Below, one piece after another: positions 1-17,486 of a stretch of 64,000 bases of DNA (the first letter of the stretch is position 1; every line of letters starts with the position of its first letter). Position numbers and translations under genes: made by a program. The DNA lies in contig CANOBK010000008.1 in NCBI GenBank assembly GCA_947564265.1, positions 1 through 64,000 of the forward strand, in the 5' to 3' direction. The notes beneath the pieces were generated by a model. It did not search any database and was not told the DNA's origin. It saw only the letters and a program-made list of their open reading frames with translations. This DNA comes from an uncultured Caryophanales bacterium (lineage in GTDB: Bacteria; Bacillota_I; Bacilli_A; RF39; UBA660).

Positions 1-2824
1 TATTTCTCAAATTCTGTCTTGTTAAGACAAATTCATAATCAACTTCACTACTATCTTTTTTCACATCATAAATTGTATTCCCATTTCCCTCGATATGTTT
101 AATTAAAGCAGTTGGATCTACGTTATATCCACGATAAGAAGCAGTACTATATCTTGCAGCACCAGTAACTAATCTTCTTCCATCTACAGAAGTTGTATCA
201 ATTGTACCAGTCCAATTCCATCTTGGATCACGATTATTTGGGAAATTATCCTCTAATTCAATTTCACGATAGATATATTGAACGCCATGACTACAAATAT
301 CTTTACTAGAATCACAAGATACTGGATCTTTATCTAATATATAATTTTGATATAGTCCATAAATACAATCAATATCTACATTCCATTGATTCCAAGAACC
401 AAAATTTCTTAAATCAACATCAATATTTTCGTACTTATCACCTTTTGCAGTAAATCTTTGAATAGTTGTATCAGTATTGCTAGGATTATAATATGGCCAA
501 TCCCGATAATCATTAATTGTTGGCGCTAATAAACTGGTATAGTACTTATATCCACCATTATAGTATTCTAGACATAGTTTATCATTTTTATCATCAAGTT
601 CACAATTCATTGTCTTCTTTTGATAAATGGTACCTACACCTAACTGTTGATTCGTTGTATTAGAAACATAAGATTGTGTCAAATGCACCACTTGCGTTCT
701 TGTAGTTGTATATTCCTTCCAAGTATAACTTAACATATCTTGAGTTACTGAATATTGCCCTGCATCTTGAGTGACAGAGGAAATGAACCTCGTCTGGTCA
801 CCTGAAGTTGAATTCGTTACCATCACATTCGTGATTGGTTGTTGATTTTTTCCAAAATTTACTTGCTTATCTAAATAATTATCATAGACACCCGTTTGAA
901 TTTCTTCATCCTTATAATCGCTTTCTGTATAGCCTTGAATACTAGCAACAACTTTACTATATTCATCTTTAACCTGTTTTACTTCTTCATAATATAGTTT
1001 TTCAGAATTTGCAGCACAGTCATCAGTTGTTACTAAGATTTCAGTACATCTTACTTCTGATTTACCTTTCTTCGGATTACATCCATCATCAAAATTCATA
1101 GCAGCTCCATGTTCTGTATAGCATGTTGCACTTCTTTTACCAGTCCTCTTACAACCAGAATTATTATTAATTACACAACAACTAGAAATAATTCCTCCCT
1201 TGATACCAGCAGATCCACCCATAAATTTTCCTTTTTCGCTACACTCTTGTGGGCAAGAAGAAGCATTTTCCCCAAAATAGGTAACAACTGGAACAATTCC
1301 TTTTTGCTTGTTAGAAATAGATAATAACCCTAAACCGTTGGTATCTGTATAACTGACTGTTTTTACATCTTGATTTCCATAAACTTCATCATAGCAACTT
1401 TCAATACAAGATTGGGAATACTTTCCTCCATCACAAGTTTGAACGCAAGCATCAAAGTCTTCATTTGGCCCAGCACAATTAATGGCATGATCATGATTTC
1501 TACCGTTACAAACTGCATAATATACACAAAGTGATTTTTTTTCAGGTACTTTTATTTGTACTGGATGACAAGTTCTAGTCAATGTAATAATGGTTGTATA
1601 AGAAAATCCTCCACCAGCATTGACCGCCTTTGGATCATCATAAGAAACAGTCATTTCTTCACTACACTCTACCCTCCAATACTTATATTTTAAGGAAGAC
1701 TCTAAATACTTATTGGTAATACTGGCTCTATAAGTATTCTTTGTATTTCCTCCTGTAGTGGTTTTTAATCCATCTCCACCACTTACGAACTCACATTTTC
1801 GAATGTTACTACCACTACTTGTGTTGTTGGGAATACTACTTTTACCACGAATCATATCTTGTACTTGAGCAATCGTTAGCATAATAGTTTCTCTACTAGG
1901 AATATTCTCTCCGTAATTAATAACATCTTTATAACAAGAAGGAATCATTCCTTTGGCAATTGGATCCGTACTAAATTCATTTTTTAAGGTGTCACACATA
2001 TTTCTTCCATCATCATAGGTATATTTAATTACTGGGTTAGAAATGTACATAGGGGCAGCACCTCTATATTCTGCCACAAATTCAGAACTACAAAATTCAG
2101 AGTTCCCATTAACATAGAATAAAAAATCAAATCTTTCGCCAAACGCTAAATCTATGGATGAACCAAAATGTTCTGTGTAAGTTCCTGGGTTCCCCGAATC
2201 ATCAAATTGATATTGTGTCATTCCATTTTCTTCATAAGTACTATAATTTAATTTTCGAAACATAAAAACGCCCGGATTCTCTTCCAAAACTTTAAATGTA
2301 ATGCGGTATCTTCCTCCACCAATCTCAGTCATGACAATATTCTCTGTATCTGTAATATCCCCAATTTTAGAATCTAATCCTCTGGCATAATAATCACATA
2401 ATTTTAATTTCCAAGCACCATCCTCCTGGACTAATGCACCACTTTCCAAAGCCTCATCAAAGGAGACAGAGTATCCACTTTCACAGTAATCAGAAATACG
2501 ATTTCCATTAGAATCCTCTGCAATGACTGAATCATCTGACCGTTTTGTCTGCACACCTTCTTTAAACTGTACACAACTAAGAGCAATATTATCATAAGAC
2601 AATTGCGTCAGATTTTCCTCTGTCACCTTTTCTGCACCCTTTAAATTCTGATAAGTATCTTCTGATTTTTTACGCCATTTGGCTTTATAAATTCTTTTAT
2701 CTACACTAATATAATCAGGAAACTGATAGTTAGCAATTCCTGCTGCTTTAACATCTATTGCTTGAAAAGAGAACAATAAAGCTAGGACAGAGAAAATACA
2801 TAATAAATATATACTTTTTTTCAT
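1..2824 (-). CDS. Large Cys-rich secreted surface protein (partial, runs off the left edge)
   Basis: An open frame starts at the ATG at 2824, preceded by a GAGGTG ribosome site, and reads leftwards without a stop to base 1, so about 941 residues are visible and the C-terminus is missing. Residues 1-28 form a signal peptide (KK, a hydrophobic core, then an Ala-rich end). The middle, roughly residues 430-620, is unusually rich in cysteine, with many paired Cys such as CVQTC, CIESC and SCPQEC, which suggests a disulfide-stabilised extracellular protein. The gene lies 11 bp downstream of a sortase gene and is probably the last or next-to-last member of that operon, so it is a natural sortase substrate candidate, but the sorting signal would lie outside the window. 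No known family was recognised. Confidence 0.8.
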   Translation of the reverse strand, partial: MKKSIYLLCIFSVLALLFSFQAIDVKAAGIANYQFPDYISVDKRIYKAKWRKKSEDTYQNLKGAEKVTEENLTQLSYDNIALSCVQFKEGVQTKRSDDSVIAEDSNGNRISDYCESGYSVSFDEALESGALVQEDGAWKLKLCDYYARGLDSKIGDITDTENIVMTEIGGGRYRITFKVLEENPGVFMFRKLNYSTYEENGMTQYQFDDSGNPGTYTEHFGSSIDLAFGERFDFLFYVNGNSEFCSSEFVAEYRGAAPMYISNPVIKYTYDDGRNMCDTLKNEFSTDPIAKGMIPSCYKDVINYGENIPSRETIMLTIAQVQDMIRGKSSIPNNTSSGSNIRKCEFVSGGDGLKTTTGGNTKNTYRASITNKYLESSLKYKYWRVECSEEMTVSYDDPKAVNAGGGFSYTTIITLTRTCHPVQIKVPEKKSLCVYYAVCNGRNHDHAINCAGPNEDFDACVQTCDGGKYSQSCIESCYDEVYGNQDVKTVSYTDTNGLGLLSISNKQKGIVPVVTYFGENASSCPQECSEKGKFMGGSAGIKGGIISSCCVINNNSGCKRTGKRSATCYTEHGAAMNFDDGCNPKKGKSEVRCTEILVTTDDCAANSEKLYYEEVKQVKDEYSKVVASIQGYTESDYKDEEIQTGVYDNYLDKQVNFGKNQQPITNVMVTNSTSGDQTRFISSVTQDAGQYSVTQDMLSYTWKEYTTTRTQVVHLTQSYVSNTTNQQLGVGTIYQKKTMNCELDDKNDKLCLEYYNGGYKYYTSLLAPTINDYRDWPYYNPSNTDTTIQRFTAKGDKYENIDVDLRNFGSWNQWNVDIDCIYGLYQNYILDKDPVSCDSSKDICSHGVQYIYREIELEDNFPNNRDPRWNWTGTIDTTSVDGRRLVTGAARYSTASYRGYNVDPTALIKHIEGNGNTIYDVKKDSSEVDYEFVLTRQNLRN

Positions 2825-11084: not shown

Positions 11085-12470
11085 ATGAAAAAAGAAAAAT
11101 GGATTTTATGTTTAATTTTTATTCTGATTCTTTGTATTAGTATTTTCTTATTTTCTTATGGAAGTGATTTCTATTGGCATTTAAAAGCTGGGGAGTATAT
11201 TTCCACCCATCATAGAATTCCATTTACAGATATTTTTTCATGGTATGCTTCTAGTAATCACCTTTCTTGGATTTCTCATGAATGGTTATTTGAAGTTTTG
11301 ATTTATCACTTTTTTCACATTGGAAAACAATTCGGTGTCTTTCTCTATGTCCTTTTATCTTTTATTTTTATTTCCATCATTCTGTGGAAACAAAATGAGA
11401 AAAATTTTTTCAGACACCCATTTGAAACGATTATTTGGAGTGTGATTGGAATGTTAGTCTTCGCAAATAAAGCACTTCCAAGGCCGCATTTAATGAGCTA
11501 TCTTTTTTTTACACTTACGATTTATTTTGCCTACGATACTATACAAAATCAAAATAGCAAAAAGATTTATCTTGCCCCACTTATTTCCCTTCTTTGGAGT
11601 AATATTCATGGAGGAAGTAGTAACTTAAGTTATCTTATCTATGGTGCCTTTTTCTTTTTCAGTGTTCTTCCATTTACTAAAGGAAAATTCAAGAATCAAC
11701 CAATGTCAAAGAAACAACAAAAGAAATATCTCTACGCTTTTTTTACTTCCATTCTATTTATTTGTATAAATCCTCATGGAATTCAAATGCTACTTTATCC
11801 CTATATCAATATGACTTATAAGGTCATGCTAAATTGTATTGAAGAATGGCAGGTTCTATCTATTACTAGTATTGATGGTATTTTCTATTTATTTTTTATT
11901 CTCATAGTATTTTTTAAAGTCTTTCATTCAAAAAAAGAACGTCAAGTACTTGATCTTCTTCTTTTATTTGTATTTGCTATTTTAGGAGTCAAATCTACTA
12001 GATTTATGCCCTATTTCTATCTTGTCTGTACTTTTATTCTTCCAAAATACTGGAAAGATTCTAATATTAAGGTTCAATTATTTCCTATCTTAATATTTCT
12101 TATTTTTCTCATTCCAAGCTTTTATTTAACACTTTATCAAAAACCTGAATTTTCTCTCGTTTCAGAAGAAATGATTGGATATTTAAAAAAAGGAAAAATA
12201 ACCCTTTATAATTCCTATGAGCTTGGTGGTTATTTGATTTATCAAGATATTCCTGTATTTATCGATGGAAGAGCTGACCTTTATATTGATACTATTTTAT
12301 GTGATGTTTGTGAAATTGAGCAAGGGAAAAATCCTAGTCTGTTAGACAATTATCCATTTGATACTTTCTTAGTACAGAATCATTCCAAAGTAGAGTCTTA
12401 CTTGAAAGAAAATTCAAAGTACCAATTAAAATTAAAAGATAGAAAAAATTCTTTATATATTTTAAAATAA
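11085..12470 (+). CDS. Polytopic membrane protein, GT-C-like
   Basis: A 461-residue integral membrane protein with about ten hydrophobic segments. The first external loop contains GSDFYWHLKAGEYI, a motif type (D-x-x-W-H-x-x-x-G) common in GT-C glycosyltransferase-like membrane proteins that use lipid-linked sugars. The C-terminal ~90 residues form a soluble domain containing YNSYELGGYLIYQDIPVFIDGRADLY. Lipid-linked sugar transfer is the best guess, but no specific substrate can be named. It has a GAAGGA ribosome site 6-7 bases before the ATG. The stop codon abuts the -35 region of the first small-peptide repeat. Confidence 0.65.
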   Translation: MKKEKWILCLIFILILCISIFLFSYGSDFYWHLKAGEYISTHHRIPFTDIFSWYASSNHLSWISHEWLFEVLIYHFFHIGKQFGVFLYVLLSFIFISIILWKQNEKNFFRHPFETIIWSVIGMLVFANKALPRPHLMSYLFFTLTIYFAYDTIQNQNSKKIYLAPLISLLWSNIHGGSSNLSYLIYGAFFFFSVLPFTKGKFKNQPMSKKQQKKYLYAFFTSILFICINPHGIQMLLYPYINMTYKVMLNCIEEWQVLSITSIDGIFYLFFILIVFFKVFHSKKERQVLDLLLLFVFAILGVKSTRFMPYFYLVCTFILPKYWKDSNIKVQLFPILIFLIFLIPSFYLTLYQKPEFSLVSEEMIGYLKKGKITLYNSYELGGYLIYQDIPVFIDGRADLYIDTILCDVCEIEQGKNPSLLDNYPFDTFLVQNHSKVESYLKENSKYQLKLKDRKNSLYILK

Positions 12471-12498
12471 GTTCAACTTATAAATTAATCGGTATAAT
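12470..12498 (+). promoter_or_regulatory. Sense promoter of repeat unit 1
   Basis: A perfect -10 TATAAT at 12493-12498 is preceded 17 bp upstream by a weak -35 (AGTTCA, 12470-12475). The predicted start (~12505) falls on GGAATACTTAG, the segment that can pair with the 3' end of the same transcript. The -10 and the preceding ATCGG are conserved in all three units. Confidence 0.65.
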
Positions 12499-12565
12499 AA
12501 TAATTGGAATACTTAGAAATAGGTACTATTCTCCTTTACTTTGAAAAGTGAAAGGAGGTGACATT

Positions 12566-12658
12566 ATGAAGATGAGAGAAACATATCTTTTCACTATCAT
12601 AATACTCCTTATTATTATGATTTTAATCATATTAATAAAAATAGTACCAACTGTATAA
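12566..12658 (+). CDS. 30-residue hydrophobic peptide, type I toxin-like (copy 1)
   Basis: A small ORF of 30 codons with a very strong Shine-Dalgarno sequence (AAAGGAGGTGA) 5 bases before the ATG. The peptide begins MKMRETYLFT, then has a continuous Ile/Leu/Met run of about 17 residues, and ends KIVPTV: one membrane helix with positive charge at both ends. Size, charge pattern and transcript architecture resemble membrane-active type I toxins (Fst, TxpA, BsrG, TisB classes), although I recognise no direct homologue. The SD is buried in an 11-bp hairpin (12531-12557), so translation is predicted to be tightly restrained. Alternatives are a leader peptide or a small regulatory membrane peptide. 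Confidence 0.8.
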   Translation: MKMRETYLFTIIILLIIMILIILIKIVPTV

Positions 12659-12743
12659 GTCGGTACTGTACCCATTTAGTGGAATAGTACCTAGTACTAC
12701 AAACTAGGTATTCCTTTTTTATTAAATGAAGACTCCTTCATCT
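12634..12743 (-). ncRNA. Predicted antisense RNA of unit 1 (candidate antitoxin, ~110 nt)
   Basis: The minus strand has TAGATA (12773-12778), a 17-bp spacer and a perfect TATAAT (12750-12755), giving a start near 12743. Transcription would run back over the sense terminator and 3' UTR. It would end at a 10-bp hairpin over the peptide stop codon (12643-12667), which on this strand is followed by ATTTTTATT. The hairpin has no U-tract on the sense strand, so it reads as an antisense terminator. The RNA would be complementary to the last codons and the whole 3' UTR of the peptide mRNA. Confidence 0.6.
12688..12720 (+). terminator. Sense terminator of unit 1
   Basis: TACCTAG, a 9-nt loop, CTAGGTA, then TTCC and six T. 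The same bases can instead pair with the 5' end of the transcript (see findings). Confidence 0.75.
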
Positions 12744-12749
12744 ACTTAT

Positions 12750-12778
12750 ATTATACTGTACTATTATTAAAATATCTA
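12750..12778 (-). promoter_or_regulatory. Antisense promoter of unit 1
   Basis: On the minus strand TAGATA, 17 bp, TATAAT. The same -35, spacing and -10 recur in units 2 and 3. Confidence 0.65.
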
Positions 12779-12797
12779 CTTTTATTTTCTAAATATT

Positions 12798-12826
12798 TTA
12801 AAGACCTATAAAACAATCGGTATAAT
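12798..12826 (+). promoter_or_regulatory. Sense promoter of repeat unit 2
   Basis: TTAAAG (12798-12803), 17-bp spacer, TATAAT (12821-12826). The predicted start is at GGAATACTTAG (12833). Confidence 0.65.
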
Positions 12827-12892
12827 GTAAGTGGAATACTTAGAAATAGGTACTATTCTCCTTTACTTTAAAAAGTGAAAGGAGGTGACATT

Positions 12893-12985
12893 ATGAAGAT
12901 GAGAGAAACATATCTTTTCACTATCATAATACTCCTTATTATTATGATTTTAATCATATTAATAAAAATAGTACCAACTGCATAA
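12893..12985 (+). CDS. 30-residue hydrophobic peptide, type I toxin-like (copy 2)
   Basis: Identical to copy 1 except for the last residue: the final sense codon is GCA instead of GTA, so the peptide ends PTA rather than PTV. That change falls in the loop of the stop-codon hairpin and leaves the stem intact. The same AAAGGAGGTGA ribosome site is buried in the same hairpin, whose loop is TAAA instead of TGAA. It has its own promoter and terminator, so the copies are separate transcription units and not an operon. Confidence 0.8.
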   Translation: MKMRETYLFTIIILLIIMILIILIKIVPTA

Positions 12986-13068
12986 GTCGGTACTTGAACA
13001 TTTTTTGGAATAGTACCTAACGATCAAACTAGGTATTCCTTTTTTATTAAATGAAGAATCCTTCATCT
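12961..13068 (-). ncRNA. Predicted antisense RNA of unit 2
   Basis: Same architecture as unit 1. The start is expected near 13068 from TATAAT at 13075-13080, and termination at the 10-bp hairpin 12970-12994, followed on the minus strand by an ATTTTTATT tract. The stretch 12995-13007, which it would cover, differs from the matching stretch in units 1 and 3. Confidence 0.6.
13014..13045 (+). terminator. Sense terminator of unit 2
   Basis: TACCTA/TAGGTA stem with a 10-nt loop, followed by TTCC and a T run. Confidence 0.72.
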
Positions 13069-13074
13069 ACTTAT

Positions 13075-13103
13075 ATTATACTGTACTATTATTAAAATAT
13101 CTA
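13075..13103 (-). promoter_or_regulatory. Antisense promoter of unit 2
   Basis: Minus strand TAGATA (13098-13103), 17 bp, TATAAT (13075-13080), as in unit 1. Confidence 0.65.
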
Positions 13104-13118
13104 CTTTTTTTAAATATT

Positions 13119-13147
13119 TTCATAACTTGTAAAACAATCGGTATAAT
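13119..13147 (+). promoter_or_regulatory. Sense promoter of repeat unit 3
   Basis: TTCATA (13119-13124), 17-bp spacer, TATAAT (13142-13147). The predicted start is at GGAATACTTAG (13155). Confidence 0.65.
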
Positions 13148-13214
13148 GATAAATGGAATACTTAGAAATAGGTACTATTCTCCTTTACTTTAAAAAGTGA
13201 AAGGAGGTGACATT

Positions 13215-13307
13215 ATGAAGATGAGAGAAACATATCTTTTCACTATCATAATACTCCTTATTATTATGATTTTAATCATATTAATAAAAATAGTACCAAC
13301 TGTATAA
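13215..13307 (+). CDS. 30-residue hydrophobic peptide, type I toxin-like (copy 3)
   Basis: The amino-acid sequence is identical to copy 1, with the same AAAGGAGGTGA ribosome site 5 bases before the ATG and the same SD-blocking hairpin. One predicted membrane helix with Lys/Arg at the N-terminus and Lys near the C-terminus. Keeping the peptide intact in all three copies while the flanking AT-rich junctions drift argues that the peptide is translated and selected, although a recent duplication would also give similarity. Confidence 0.8.
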   Translation: MKMRETYLFTIIILLIIMILIILIKIVPTV

Positions 13308-13396
13308 GTCGGTACTAAACCAAAAATATTTTAGAATAGTACCTAGCACTACAAACTAGGTATTCCTTTTTTTATTGAATGAAGAATCCTTCATCT
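13283..13396 (-). ncRNA. Predicted antisense RNA of unit 3
   Basis: TATAAT at 13403-13408 gives a start near 13396. The terminator hairpin is 13292-13316, followed on the minus strand by an ATTTTTATT tract. The antisense promoter lies immediately beyond the stop codon of the minus-strand gene ending at 13439, so readthrough from that gene could also produce antisense RNA. Confidence 0.58.
13340..13373 (+). terminator. Sense terminator of unit 3
   Basis: TACCTAG/CTAGGTA stem with a 9-nt loop, then TTCC and seven T. Confidence 0.75.
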
Positions 13397-13402
13397 ACTT
13401 AT

Positions 13403-13431
13403 ATTATACTGTATCCTAATAAAAATATCTA
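13403..13431 (-). promoter_or_regulatory. Antisense promoter of unit 3
   Basis: Minus strand TAGATA (13426-13431), 17 bp, TATAAT (13403-13408). Confidence 0.65.
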
Positions 13432-13438
13432 CTTTTTT

Positions 13439-14746
13439 TTAATTTGTATATACTTGATCTTGAGAAGGTAAGGTTTCTACATACTGATAATTTTCTAAAA
13501 TATATTCTTTAAAGATCGGATCGTTTTGTAGTTCTTTTTTTTCTTCAAAATAATCACGATCTAAAATAAAAATACATTTTTCTTTTTTACATGTTTTTTC
13601 TATCTGATTCAAATACTGTTCCTTGTTACTTCCTAAATTTCCCTGATTAATTAAATCATGAAAACTAGGAATTTCTGAAAGTTGTAAACGAATTAAGTAA
13701 GCGTTTGACATGAACAAATAAACATGGGCTTCTGTTTCTTTTTGCTTTACGTAATTTGTAATATTCAAAAAGTAAGAGTCAAAGCCTGGATTTACTCTTC
13801 GATAACGAACAAAAGAATCGATTTTCGTATAGGTAAAAGGAAAGTCCTTTAAAAACACAACGAGAAAACTAACTATCAATAGTCTCTTGGTAATCACCAA
13901 ATATTCCCTTTTCTTACAGGTCGAAAAAAAATAATAAAGAACAGGAAGTAACCCCATAAATACATGATTACTATCTATAATTGGGAAAGCCATCAACTGA
14001 AAAAAAAGCAAATAGAGAATTTTAGAATCTTTGGTTAATAGAAACTTTCTTCCTAAAAGAAAAAGAATTAGAAGTTCAATTAATAAAAACGGAATAGAAC
14101 AAGAAAAATTATCTAAAAAACTACCAAGTCCTAAATAACAAAAATCAATATAATTGAATAAATTTTTTTGGTATAAAAGGATTCCAAAAAAAACAAGACA
14201 AGGAAGTAAAAAGGAAACTAGTATTTCTTTTTTCTTTTTATTTGTAAAAAGTGCGATGATTAGGAAAGCAATTCCAATATTTTGTTTTGTCATGAAAATA
14301 AAACTAAGAAGAAGACCTAAAAGCCAAGGATGATATTTCCAATCTTTCTCCTCTAACATTAAAATACAAATACATAAAAAAGCGACGAAAGTATTATAAT
14401 TAAAGAGAATTGGTAAAATACCTAAAAAAAGAAGTAAATAAAAAGAGGAAGTTCCTATCTTTCTATAAATTAAAAGAAAAAAGAATCCAAATAATACACT
14501 ATTGATTAAAGAGAAAAAGAAAATATGATTTTTAAAAAGAGAAAGAAAAATAGCAATTAAAAAGTTATAGAATGGACCAACTACCATATTAAAATCTTTA
14601 TAAGGAATCATTCCATTTGCCATATTGTAAGAAAAACCATAGTTCCATATTTCATCTCTGGTTAAGCTTGTCATAAAATACGAAATGACCAAAAGGAAAA
14701 AAACAGAGGCCATATAAATAAAAAAATCATGTTTCTTTATCTTCAT
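13439..14746 (-). CDS. Polytopic membrane protein, GT-C / GT39-like
   Basis: A 435-residue protein with about ten hydrophobic segments. The first external loop contains SLTRDEIWNYGF and later DFNMVVGPFYNF. An acidic residue near an N-terminal Trp loop followed by many membrane helices is typical of GT-C enzymes of the dolichyl-phosphate-mannosyltransferase (PMT/ArnT) type. The last ~100 residues are soluble (YLFMSNAYLIRLQLSEIP onward). It faces the other GT-C-like gene at 11085-12470 across the triple repeat. The substrate is unknown, and the family assignment rests on topology and weak motifs. Confidence 0.62.
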   Translation of the reverse strand: MKIKKHDFFIYMASVFFLLVISYFMTSLTRDEIWNYGFSYNMANGMIPYKDFNMVVGPFYNFLIAIFLSLFKNHIFFFSLINSVLFGFFFLLIYRKIGTSSFYLLLFLGILPILFNYNTFVAFLCICILMLEEKDWKYHPWLLGLLLSFIFMTKQNIGIAFLIIALFTNKKKKEILVSFLLPCLVFFGILLYQKNLFNYIDFCYLGLGSFLDNFSCSIPFLLIELLILFLLGRKFLLTKDSKILYLLFFQLMAFPIIDSNHVFMGLLPVLYYFFSTCKKREYLVITKRLLIVSFLVVFLKDFPFTYTKIDSFVRYRRVNPGFDSYFLNITNYVKQKETEAHVYLFMSNAYLIRLQLSEIPSFHDLINQGNLGSNKEQYLNQIEKTCKKEKCIFILDRDYFEEKKELQNDPIFKEYILENYQYVETLPSQDQVYTN

Positions 14747-16736: not shown

Positions 16737-17486
16737 TTATTCAACATCGTAATTTGTAATTGTAGTAACTCCATTAAAGTATTTAATATTAGCATTACAC
16801 CAGTCAATAGATGGCTCTTCTCCAGCCCCAAAGACTTTTGTCAGATTTACAACTAAAATATCATCAATATAAGCAGTAGCAGTATCACTGCTTGCGACTC
16901 CTACCTGCACAAATACTTCTGCATCTTGTGGAACAACAGCAATAGCTCCCCCTCTTTCAAAATCACTTGTCACTCTCGACGTATAGTAACTTCCTTCTAC
17001 CGAAGGAATCGCTGTCCCATACTGACCTCCTGTAGGTTTTTGAGAATTATAAGCTAGAGAAACTGTAACGCCACCACTAATACTTTTAATATAAACGTAA
17101 TAGCCAACATAGATTTTATCTCCAGGAGATACATCAGGAATTCTTTGCCACTGCCACCCTCTTGGTGAAACAAATAAACTTTTACTTCCAGAGTGGAAAG
17201 TGGAAGAATCCGTTACATTTCCCAACTGATTATTTGTTGTATATAAGTCTGTCGTCCAAGAAGCACCATCATTTTCAAAACTACCATTCGATATTAAATT
17301 ATAAAGTTGTAGACTATCTCCATTCACACCACTTACTTGTTCTTTTACCATATCTGCTAAATCTAATGTATTTTTATTATTGGTAGATAAAACGGAAAGA
17401 ATTAAAACTAAAACTAATGCAACAATCGTCGCTGAAGCATATAACAAAACCGAAACAGCAAACCCTCGATTATCTACTTTCTTCAT
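16737..17486 (-). CDS. Prepilin-like exported protein with C-terminal jelly-roll-like domain
   Basis: A 249-residue protein. The N-terminus KKVDNRGFAVSVLLYASA followed by a long hydrophobic helix resembles a type IV prepilin leader (cleavage after the Gly of RGF, then a membrane/assembly helix), although Glu+5 of true pilins is absent (Val-Ser there). After residue ~60 comes LISNGSFENDGASW, the opening of carbohydrate-binding-module-like jelly rolls, and FHSGSKSLFV with later AYIDDILVVNL completes that pattern. It ends 45 bp before sigG on the same strand. A type IV pilus-like or pseudopilin role with sugar binding is inferred; a plain membrane-anchored lectin is the alternative. Confidence 0.65.
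   Translation of the reverse strand: MKKVDNRGFAVSVLLYASATIVALVLVLILSVLSTNNKNTLDLADMVKEQVSGVNGDSLQLYNLISNGSFENDGASWTTDLYTTNNQLGNVTDSSTFHSGSKSLFVSPRGWQWQRIPDVSPGDKIYVGYYVYIKSISGGVTVSLAYNSQKPTGGQYGTAIPSVEGSYYTSRVTSDFERGGAIAVVPQDAEVFVQVGVASSDTATAYIDDILVVNLTKVFGAGEEPSIDWCNANIKYFNGVTTITNYDVE

What the first reader, a model, noticed from the sequence alone, without database searches (positions are those of the whole stretch)
12476..13438. Three tandem cassettes look like an undescribed type I toxin-antitoxin family
Each ~325-bp unit carries a 30-residue hydrophobic, basic-ended peptide with a perfect Shine-Dalgarno, its own promoter and terminator, and a convergent antisense transcription unit. Direct observation: the peptide is identical in copies 1 and 3 and differs by one residue in copy 2, and all signals are repeated three times. 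Known biology: small hydrophobic peptide, tightly structured mRNA and 3'-overlapping antisense RNA are the marks of type I systems (hok/sok, fst, txpA/RatA, bsrG/SR4). Inference: this is such a system. I recognise no named family with this peptide.
Basis: partly seen in the sequence, partly recalled or inferred. Interest (0 to 1): 0.88.

Follow-up and report, generated by a model that had tools for sequence, protein, structure and literature searches.

The report
New bacterial toxin–antisense-RNA cassette family
Three side-by-side copies of a tiny gene pair, a membrane peptide that is probably toxic to its own cell and an antisense RNA that silences it, belong to an apparently undescribed family carried by about a third of the sampled genomes of one group of uncultured bacteria, and the switches of both RNAs are preserved by evolution.

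Summary
In detail: three ~325-bp units at 12475-13440, 30-aa hydrophobic peptide, V30A in copy 2. A peptide match (E<=0.01) occurs in 135 of 386 genomes of the same family; class and phylum samples (E<=5e-4) gave matches only inside that family (18 of 395, 8 of 392). In 79 of 87 cassettes the best antisense promoter lies 37-41 nt past the sense T-run (shuffles 258 of 4350); the other 8 are readable by eye. Shine-Dalgarno hairpin and a 5'-3' lock covary on 50 cassettes (24 double-change cells, shuffles 7.8, 0 of 500). Their G-U pairs fit the sense strand; those of the CDS-end hairpin fit the antisense strand (5 against 55), so it is probably the antisense terminator. A shorter sister group keeps the plan with other sequences. 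No Pfam, NCBIfam or PADLOC family, no Rfam family at gathering score. Best reading: a new family of type I toxin-antitoxin loci. Transcripts and toxicity are untested, and folding does not show how the closed mRNA opens.

The parts
12493..12498 (+). copy 1 sense -10 (TATAAT)
   Evidence: direct reading; 73 nt before the ATG, within the -71..-79 range found in 75 of 87 cassettes; for this copy the script itself preferred another site
12506..12516 (+). copy 1 mRNA 5' end: left arm of 5'-3' lock helix 1
12520..12531 (+). copy 1 leader: left arm of 5'-3' lock helix 2
12531..12557 (+). copy 1 Shine-Dalgarno-sequestering hairpin
12566..12658 (+). copy 1 30-aa hydrophobic peptide (putative toxin)
12643..12667 (-). 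copy 1 antisense intrinsic terminator (T-run 12641-12637), overlapping the end of the CDS
12681..12720 (+). copy 1 sense terminator hairpin and T-run; also the right arms of the 5'-3' lock
12637..12743 (-). copy 1 predicted antisense RNA (putative antitoxin), about 107 nt
   Evidence: inferred from promoter and terminator
12750..12778 (-). copy 1 antisense promoter TAGATA-17-TATAAT
   Evidence: place conserved in relatives
12821..12826 (+). copy 2 sense -10
12893..12985 (+). copy 2 peptide (V30A)
12970..12994 (-). copy 2 antisense terminator
13008..13045 (+). copy 2 sense terminator
   Evidence: direct reading, alignment; not called by the scan
13075..13103 (-). copy 2 antisense promoter
13142..13147 (+). 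copy 3 sense -10
13215..13307 (+). copy 3 peptide
13291..13317 (-). copy 3 antisense terminator
13334..13373 (+). copy 3 sense terminator
   Evidence: direct reading, alignment; not called by the scan
13403..13431 (-). copy 3 antisense promoter

Best explanation
Each unit is a self-contained type I toxin-antitoxin locus of a new family. A leader of ~60 nt and a 30-codon ORF are transcribed from a sense promoter. [quoted passage not shown] effect on translation inferred). A convergent promoter drives a ~107-nt antisense RNA with a 5' hairpin, a copy of the terminator stem-loop, and a terminator that lies across the end of the toxin ORF; its ~84-nt overlap with the mRNA 3' half would allow duplex formation and RNase III decay, as in txpA/RatA and bsrG/SR4 (inferred). 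The peptide (charged N-terminus, ~17-residue hydrophobic stretch, closing lysine) would insert in the membrane and disturb it if antisense control fails (inferred). The IVPTV tail seems dispensable: the sister group and two main-group cassettes end at the lysine.
For: Antisense promoter conserved in place, hexamers kept while the spacer drifts: 79 of 87 at +37..41 (shuffles 258 of 4350), mean score 10.0 against 5.5 (sd 1.6); TTG in 72/66/68 of 72, TG in 69/67 of 72, TA..T in 72 of 72. Sense promoter at -71..-79 in 75 of 87, shuffles 419 of 2610. Covariation of SD hairpin and 5'-3' lock: 24 double-change cells against 7.8 (sd 2.3), 0 of 500 shuffles, 50 sequences. Strand asymmetry, G-U against A-C on the sense strand: SD hairpin 65:9, lock helices 75:7 and 25:2; CDS-end hairpin 5:55. 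Sense mRNA mean z -7.9 over 79 distinct sequences; antisense 5' hairpin mean z -2.7. Coding signature: codons 10-22 vary .070/.029/.108 by codon position, pN/pS 0.56. Sister group keeps the parts with other sequences (antisense promoter in 12 of 12 scored, 1 skipped). A diverged cassette sits at the same chromosomal site in G002.
Against: No transcript or toxicity data. SD and start codon stay closed in full-length, 3'-trimmed and leader-only models (P unpaired ~0.10-0.14 and ~0.002-0.003), so folding gives no activation step. pN/pS 0.56 is only moderate and partly shaped by RNA constraint (other frames 0.79 and 1.44). In one search the number of pairs with a double change (7) is exceeded by two of the six slid controls (8 and 10), and 22 of 500 shuffles reach it; shuffles do not keep relatedness. 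The sense terminator alone covaries only marginally. L113 has lost the lock and L121 shows no SD-hairpin partner by eye. The strict terminator search found no antisense terminator in 2 of 12 sister-type rows, L126 and L108. The window's antisense -35 (TAGATA) is weaker than in most relatives, and at the G002 site the script's best antisense promoter is elsewhere, although the aligned -10 is identical. Hexamer frequencies for promoter scoring were recalled from memory.
Confidence: 0.84

Rival explanations
1. The peptide is a useful, non-toxic small membrane protein (for example a regulator of a membrane enzyme) whose dose is tightly held by a structured mRNA and an antisense RNA; the anatomy is type I-like without a toxin.
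For: The anatomy says nothing about toxicity; the peptide is conserved beyond hydrophobicity (I11, I12, L14, L15, K25 and P28 in 66 of 66); the window neighbours tested look chromosomal.
Against: Patchy distribution (135 of 386 genomes, many of them incomplete), up to 14 matches in one genome, no cassette at the orthologous site in G016 and decayed copies fit a dispensable, addiction-like element better than a housekeeping regulator; the N-terminal residues vary and the tail can be lost.
Confidence: 0.11
2. The element is a mobile or repetitive non-coding RNA unit; the ORF is incidental.
For: Several copies per genome in many genomes, unrelated flanks where compared, strong RNA structure.
Against: Start codon, Shine-Dalgarno and frame are kept in the 87 cassettes compared (these were selected for a start; start-less copies were left out); second codon positions vary least in the hydrophobic segment; in the sister group the sequence differs while charged start, hydrophobic core and closing lysine remain.
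Confidence: 0.03
3. The convergent signals are a bidirectional terminator plus chance AT-rich -10 boxes; there is no antisense RNA and the ORF is controlled by its leader alone.
For: AT-rich DNA gives many promoter-like sites (20 found against 8.9 in shuffles).
Against: Position, spacing and hexamers conserved in relatives while the spacer drifts; the CDS-end hairpin departs through A-C on the sense strand, which is G-U on the antisense strand (55 against 5); in L123 its counterpart is a different perfect hairpin followed by TTTTTTT on the antisense strand.
Confidence: 0.02

Closest known systems
bsrG/SR4, txpA/RatA, bsrE/SR5, yonT/SR6 (Bacillus subtilis type I loci)
   Same: Small membrane peptide, ribosome site in a hairpin, antisense RNA from its own promoter overlapping the toxin mRNA at the 3' ends (PMC6562991, passages and section 2.4; PMC3531473, passages: txpA/RatA overlap predicted at ~120 nt).
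   Different: No significant Pfam match for the peptide and no Rfam match at gathering score for the RNAs. Here tandem, with a covarying 5'-3' lock and a shorter inferred overlap (~84 nt).
aapA/IsoA (Helicobacter) and hok/Sok
   Same: Full-length mRNA held by a 5'-3' long-distance interaction; aapA is also multicopy on the chromosome (PMC6733600, passages).
   Different: In aapA the lock itself covers the Shine-Dalgarno and 3' trimming frees it; here a separate local hairpin covers it and a trimmed model stays closed. The antisense overlaps the 3' half here.
Clostridioides difficile type I loci and Fst/Ldr
   Same: Gram-positive small hydrophobic toxins (34-59 aa in C. difficile) with antisense RNAs (PMC6563280, passages; PMC7472228, start of abstract in a search listing).
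   Different: Toxin homologues in C. difficile phages carry lysine-rich C-termini, and the C. difficile loci lie in prophages or beside CRISPR arrays; this peptide has one closing lysine and a neutral tail. CRISPR arrays and prophages were not searched for here beyond ten neighbouring genes. No significant family match.

Membership tests
Type I toxin-antitoxin loci (general kind) | Small hydrophobic peptide under about 60 aa with one membrane helix | tested here: met
   30 aa, GRAVY 2.0, residues 7-24 mean hydropathy 3.46; coding signature; helix itself not modelled
Type I toxin-antitoxin loci (general kind) | Antisense RNA gene with own promoter and terminator overlapping the toxin mRNA | tested here: met
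   by sequence signals and their conservation only, no transcript:
Type I toxin-antitoxin loci (general kind) | Structured mRNA hiding the ribosome-binding site | tested here: met
   prediction plus covariation:
Type I toxin-antitoxin loci (general kind) | Expression of the peptide stops growth and the antisense RNA prevents it | not testable with these tools
   needs the bench
bsrG/SR4 - txpA/RatA type | Convergent genes, RNAs overlapping at the 3' ends | tested here: met
   predicted from window signals and their conservation
bsrG/SR4 - txpA/RatA type | Peptide sequence related to the known toxins | tested here: not met
   no known toxin family among the Pfam matches up to E 10 of 21 representatives (best E 0.063, SNARE); that Pfam holds models for these toxins is recalled, not checked, and no direct comparison with the toxin sequences was made
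aapA/IsoA - hok/Sok type | 5'-3' long-distance interaction in the full-length mRNA | tested here: met
   helices 1 and 2 (96.9% and 99.5% of cells paired, 12 double-change cells); leader-terminator pairing at or below 2 of 100 shuffles in 77 of 84 main-group cassettes
aapA/IsoA - hok/Sok type | 3' trimming frees the Shine-Dalgarno | tested here: inconclusive
   equilibrium folding does not free it in the three window copies
Fst/Ldr superfamily | Fst/Ldr peptide family match | tested here: not met
   no such match in Pfam or NCBIfam; presence of Fst/Ldr models there is recalled

The most novel reading that the evidence does not exclude
The locus is a three-way RNA switch for which I saw no precedent in the papers listed or read: the leader of the toxin mRNA has two alternative downstream partners, one at the end of the coding region and one in the terminator, and the antisense RNA, made from those same two segments, carries two imitations of the leader and so both silences and mimics it. 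It would combine the 5'-3' lock known from Hok/AapA with the 3'-overlapping antisense known from BsrG/TxpA, in a lineage-specific, multicopy family.
Probability: 0.35. Interest if true: 0.72.

Novelty: new member of a known kind. Interest (0 to 1): 0.6.

Why it matters
Type I loci are hard to find by sequence, because the peptides are tiny and unlike each other. This one comes with 87 main-group cassettes and about a dozen others in hand, so its RNA switches can be read from evolution before any experiment. It adds a family in small-genome uncultured Bacilli (many of the named records carry rabbit-style 'Lapin' labels), a group where the one lineage name tried (RF39, recalled) returned no paper on toxin-antitoxins. 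Natural variants (truncated tails, swapped hairpins, an empty site) show which parts to test.

Tried and rejected
Peptide-profile scans of genome contigs and viral contigs confirmed nothing; at least the first is uninformative, because a DNA-motif scan of the same collection then found 111 stretches, probably since a 30-aa match cannot reach the tblastn cut-off. The motif scan of viral contigs (exact motif only) and blastn against phages and plasmids found nothing, so a phage or plasmid home was not pursued. Weak Rfam matches (best by bits Ref55, E 0.46, 25.4 bits against a gathering score of 43; lowest E 0.073, a group II intron model), weak PHROGs and weak Pfam matches are at chance level. 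The antisense 5' hairpin could not be scored on alignment A3 because its register shifts (54 Watson-Crick, 70 G-U, 81 A-C, 55 other); it was folded sequence by sequence, where 65 of 79 have z below -1. Activation by 3' trimming was modelled and not supported. Near-stop pairing of the leader is modest: main group mean z -1.96, 21 of 84 at or below 2 of 100 shuffles; other group mean z -2.57, 9 of 12. Eight of 87 cassettes failed the antisense-promoter script; read by eye seven suffer from a misplaced T-run anchor and L089 has an insertion. Rows dropped: start-less, truncated or contig-end copies (L008, L013, L014, L039 and others) were left out of the 87, and a few of the 87 are identical (84 distinct over 345 nt). 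From the 87, 69 representatives were chosen (L005 left out) and I gave 50 of the 69 to alignment A3; the 19 left out include most of the divergent ones (such as L100, L108, L115-L118, L120-L122), so the covariation counts describe the better-aligned part. The 12 rows of the second group include two main-group cassettes that end early (L105, L113) and one intermediate (L125).

Full report
What is there. The window carries three direct copies of a ~325-bp unit at about 12475-13440 (spacing 327 and 322). Each has a 30-codon ORF (12566-12658, 12893-12985, 13215-13307) behind AAGGAGGTG; the peptide is the same in copies 1 and 3 and V30A in copy 2. No other copy was found in the assembly. The scan finds an antisense promoter TAGATA-17-TATAAT and an antisense terminator in all three copies; terminators are 4 against 0.2 in shuffles. 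The sense RNA folds at z -8.1, the antisense RNA at z -3.75. The units lie between two genes for long, apparently hydrophobic proteins. Of ten neighbouring proteins tested, seven have a Pfam match (U32 peptidase, SpoU methylase, sigma-70 regions, DNA alkylation repair, PRC barrel, DUF6568, CBM_4_9) and three, the two flanking ones included, have none.

Relatives. In a first sample of 99 relatives, own genome included, 30 have a match at E<=1, but only 12 at E<=1e-3. With a 13-row profile, 135 of 386 genomes of the same family match at E<=0.01, in 73 of 150 genera, with up to 14 matches in one genome. A motif with up to 2 mismatches is found in 99 of 385 genomes of the order sample. An exact-motif scan of named genomes gave 111 stretches, of which 80 are listed; all 80 are metagenome-assembled genomes titled as Bacilli, Tenericutes, Firmicutes, Mycoplasma sp., Bacillales, Erysipelotrichaceae, Clostridia or plain bacterium. 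Class-wide 18 of 395 and phylum-wide 8 of 392 genomes match at E<=5e-4, every one in the window's own family; the weak matches outside it (E 0.12 and worse) were not followed. Tandem arrays recur elsewhere. The flanks of the copies printed differ; in 13 of the 80 named loci with enough flank, no ORF of 90 aa or more overlaps the leader, and two of these (L185, L191) share their neighbours.

Same-site test. Beside the orthologue of the upstream gene, G016 (L256) has no cassette, and the matches to the two flanking proteins end 47 bp apart; G002 (L258) has one diverged cassette (25-aa peptide) and, by eye, a remnant of a second at the same site; G009 (L257) has none, and the downstream gene does not match there. 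The G002 cassette aligns with the window from the sense -10 to the antisense -10, with a 12-nt identical stretch over the latter, though the promoter script prefers another site there.

Antisense promoter. 87 cassettes with a recognised start and enough flank were scored. The best promoter on the antisense strand lies 37-41 nt past the sense T-run in 79 of 87 (shuffles 258 of 4350), mean score 10.0 against 5.5 (sd 1.6); 53 of 87 beat all 50 shuffles. In 72 distinct sequences aligned without gaps the -35 TTG is kept in 72, 66 and 68, the TG of the extended -10 in 69 and 67, TA..T of the -10 in 72 each; in the spacer columns -17 to -6 the commonest base reaches only 35 to 79%, in the two columns before the TG 93 and 86%. 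This alignment is centred on the scored promoter, so the hexamer counts are partly circular; the position test is not. The eight exceptions read by eye keep the promoter, L089 with a weaker -10. The sense promoter sits at -71..-79 in 75 of 87 (shuffles 419 of 2610).

RNA structure. On 50 cassettes (A3; 50 of 69 representatives, most of the divergent ones left out) a structure of 43 pairs was counted: 95.3% of cells paired, 24 double-change cells against 7.8 (sd 2.3), covariation 0.110 against 0.093, each reached by 0 of 500 shuffles. Less clear: 7 pairs with a double change against 4.3, reached by 22 of 500 and exceeded by two slid controls; and the shuffles do not keep relatedness. The double changes lie in lock helix 1 (5 and 6 cells), lock helix 2 (1) and the Shine-Dalgarno hairpin (8, 2, 1 and 1); the CDS-end hairpin has none, and one of its positions fails to pair on the sense strand in 48 of 50. 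That failure is informative: the same letters pair as G-U on the antisense strand. Over all pairs, sense-strand G-U against A-C is 65:9 (SD hairpin), 75:7 and 25:2 (lock helices), but 5:55 for the CDS-end hairpin. So the first three look made for the sense RNA and the last for the antisense RNA, where it is followed by ATTTTTATTA. The sense terminator alone is 15:37, its covariation marginal; its letters are shared with the lock and with the antisense stem-loop. Mean z is -7.9 for 79 sense RNAs (range -11.9 to -2.1) and -2.7 for the antisense 5' hairpin, 65 of 79 below -1.

Sister group. Shorter peptides ending at the lysine (for example L123, three tandem copies) have another leader, another lock and another antisense terminator sequence, yet the same order of parts; a strict search found an antisense terminator in 10 of 12 rows, none in L126 and L108. 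Leader-to-terminator pairing has mean z -5.75 over 12 rows, 11 at or below 2 of 100 shuffles, and the antisense promoter is at +37..+39 in 12 of 12 scored, one skipped. Three of these 12 rows are main-group or intermediate (L105, L113, L125). L105 and L113 end at the lysine through a shorter A-run, so the IVPTV tail looks dispensable (inference).

Coding. In 66 distinct 30-codon ORFs, pN/pS is 0.58 overall and 0.56 in codons 10-22, where variability by codon position is .070/.029/.108; the other two frames give 0.79 and 1.44. I11, I12, L14, L15, K25 and P28 are invariant.

How it works. Shown by comparison: conserved promoters and hairpins, their strand, covariation. Inferred: a closed mRNA; a ~107-nt antisense RNA overlapping its 3' half by ~84 nt; duplex decay by RNase III as in txpA/RatA and bsrG/SR4 (PMC6562991, PMC3531473, passages); a membrane-acting peptide, as is usual for type I toxins (PMC8309996, its section 2). 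Against a complete account: the ribosome site stays closed in all modelled forms, so the opening step is unknown.

Known or new. No match in Rfam at gathering score, NCBIfam (one peptide), PADLOC (three peptides) or PDB sequences (E<=1); only chance-level matches in Pfam, PHROGs and Rfam below gathering. Two core peptide strings occur in no held paper, and no held paper joins RF39 and toxin-antitoxin (RF39 as a name for this lineage is recalled, not verified). T1TAdb itself could not be searched. I file it as a new family within a known kind, type I toxin-antitoxin loci, with a mixed architecture.

Noticed in passing
L094 (G307:C13:12250-13350): A relative seems to have lost the stretch between two AATAGTACC repeats, which removes the antisense terminator and changes the peptide end; the antisense promoter remains.
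   Followed up: partly
L258 (G002), about 280 nt after the start of the first cassette: Apparent remnant of a second cassette (CDS-end hairpin and antisense side) at the orthologous site.
   Followed up: partly
window 11085-12470 (+) and 13439-14746 (-): The two flanking long, apparently hydrophobic proteins have no Pfam family; the first has relatives in 8 of 18 genomes of the genus, the window's own counted.
   Followed up: no
window 13287-13330, minus strand: Weak resemblance of the antisense 3' end to Enterococcus sRNA Ref55 (E 0.46, below gathering score), possibly chance.
   Followed up: no
window 16737-17486 (-): A 249-aa protein with a hydrophobic start and a carbohydrate-binding-like domain (CBM_4_9, E 1.1e-5) next to the sigma-factor gene.
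   Followed up: no
L124, L126, L108: Most divergent sister cassettes, in which leader, near-stop and terminator segments have all changed together.
   Followed up: partly
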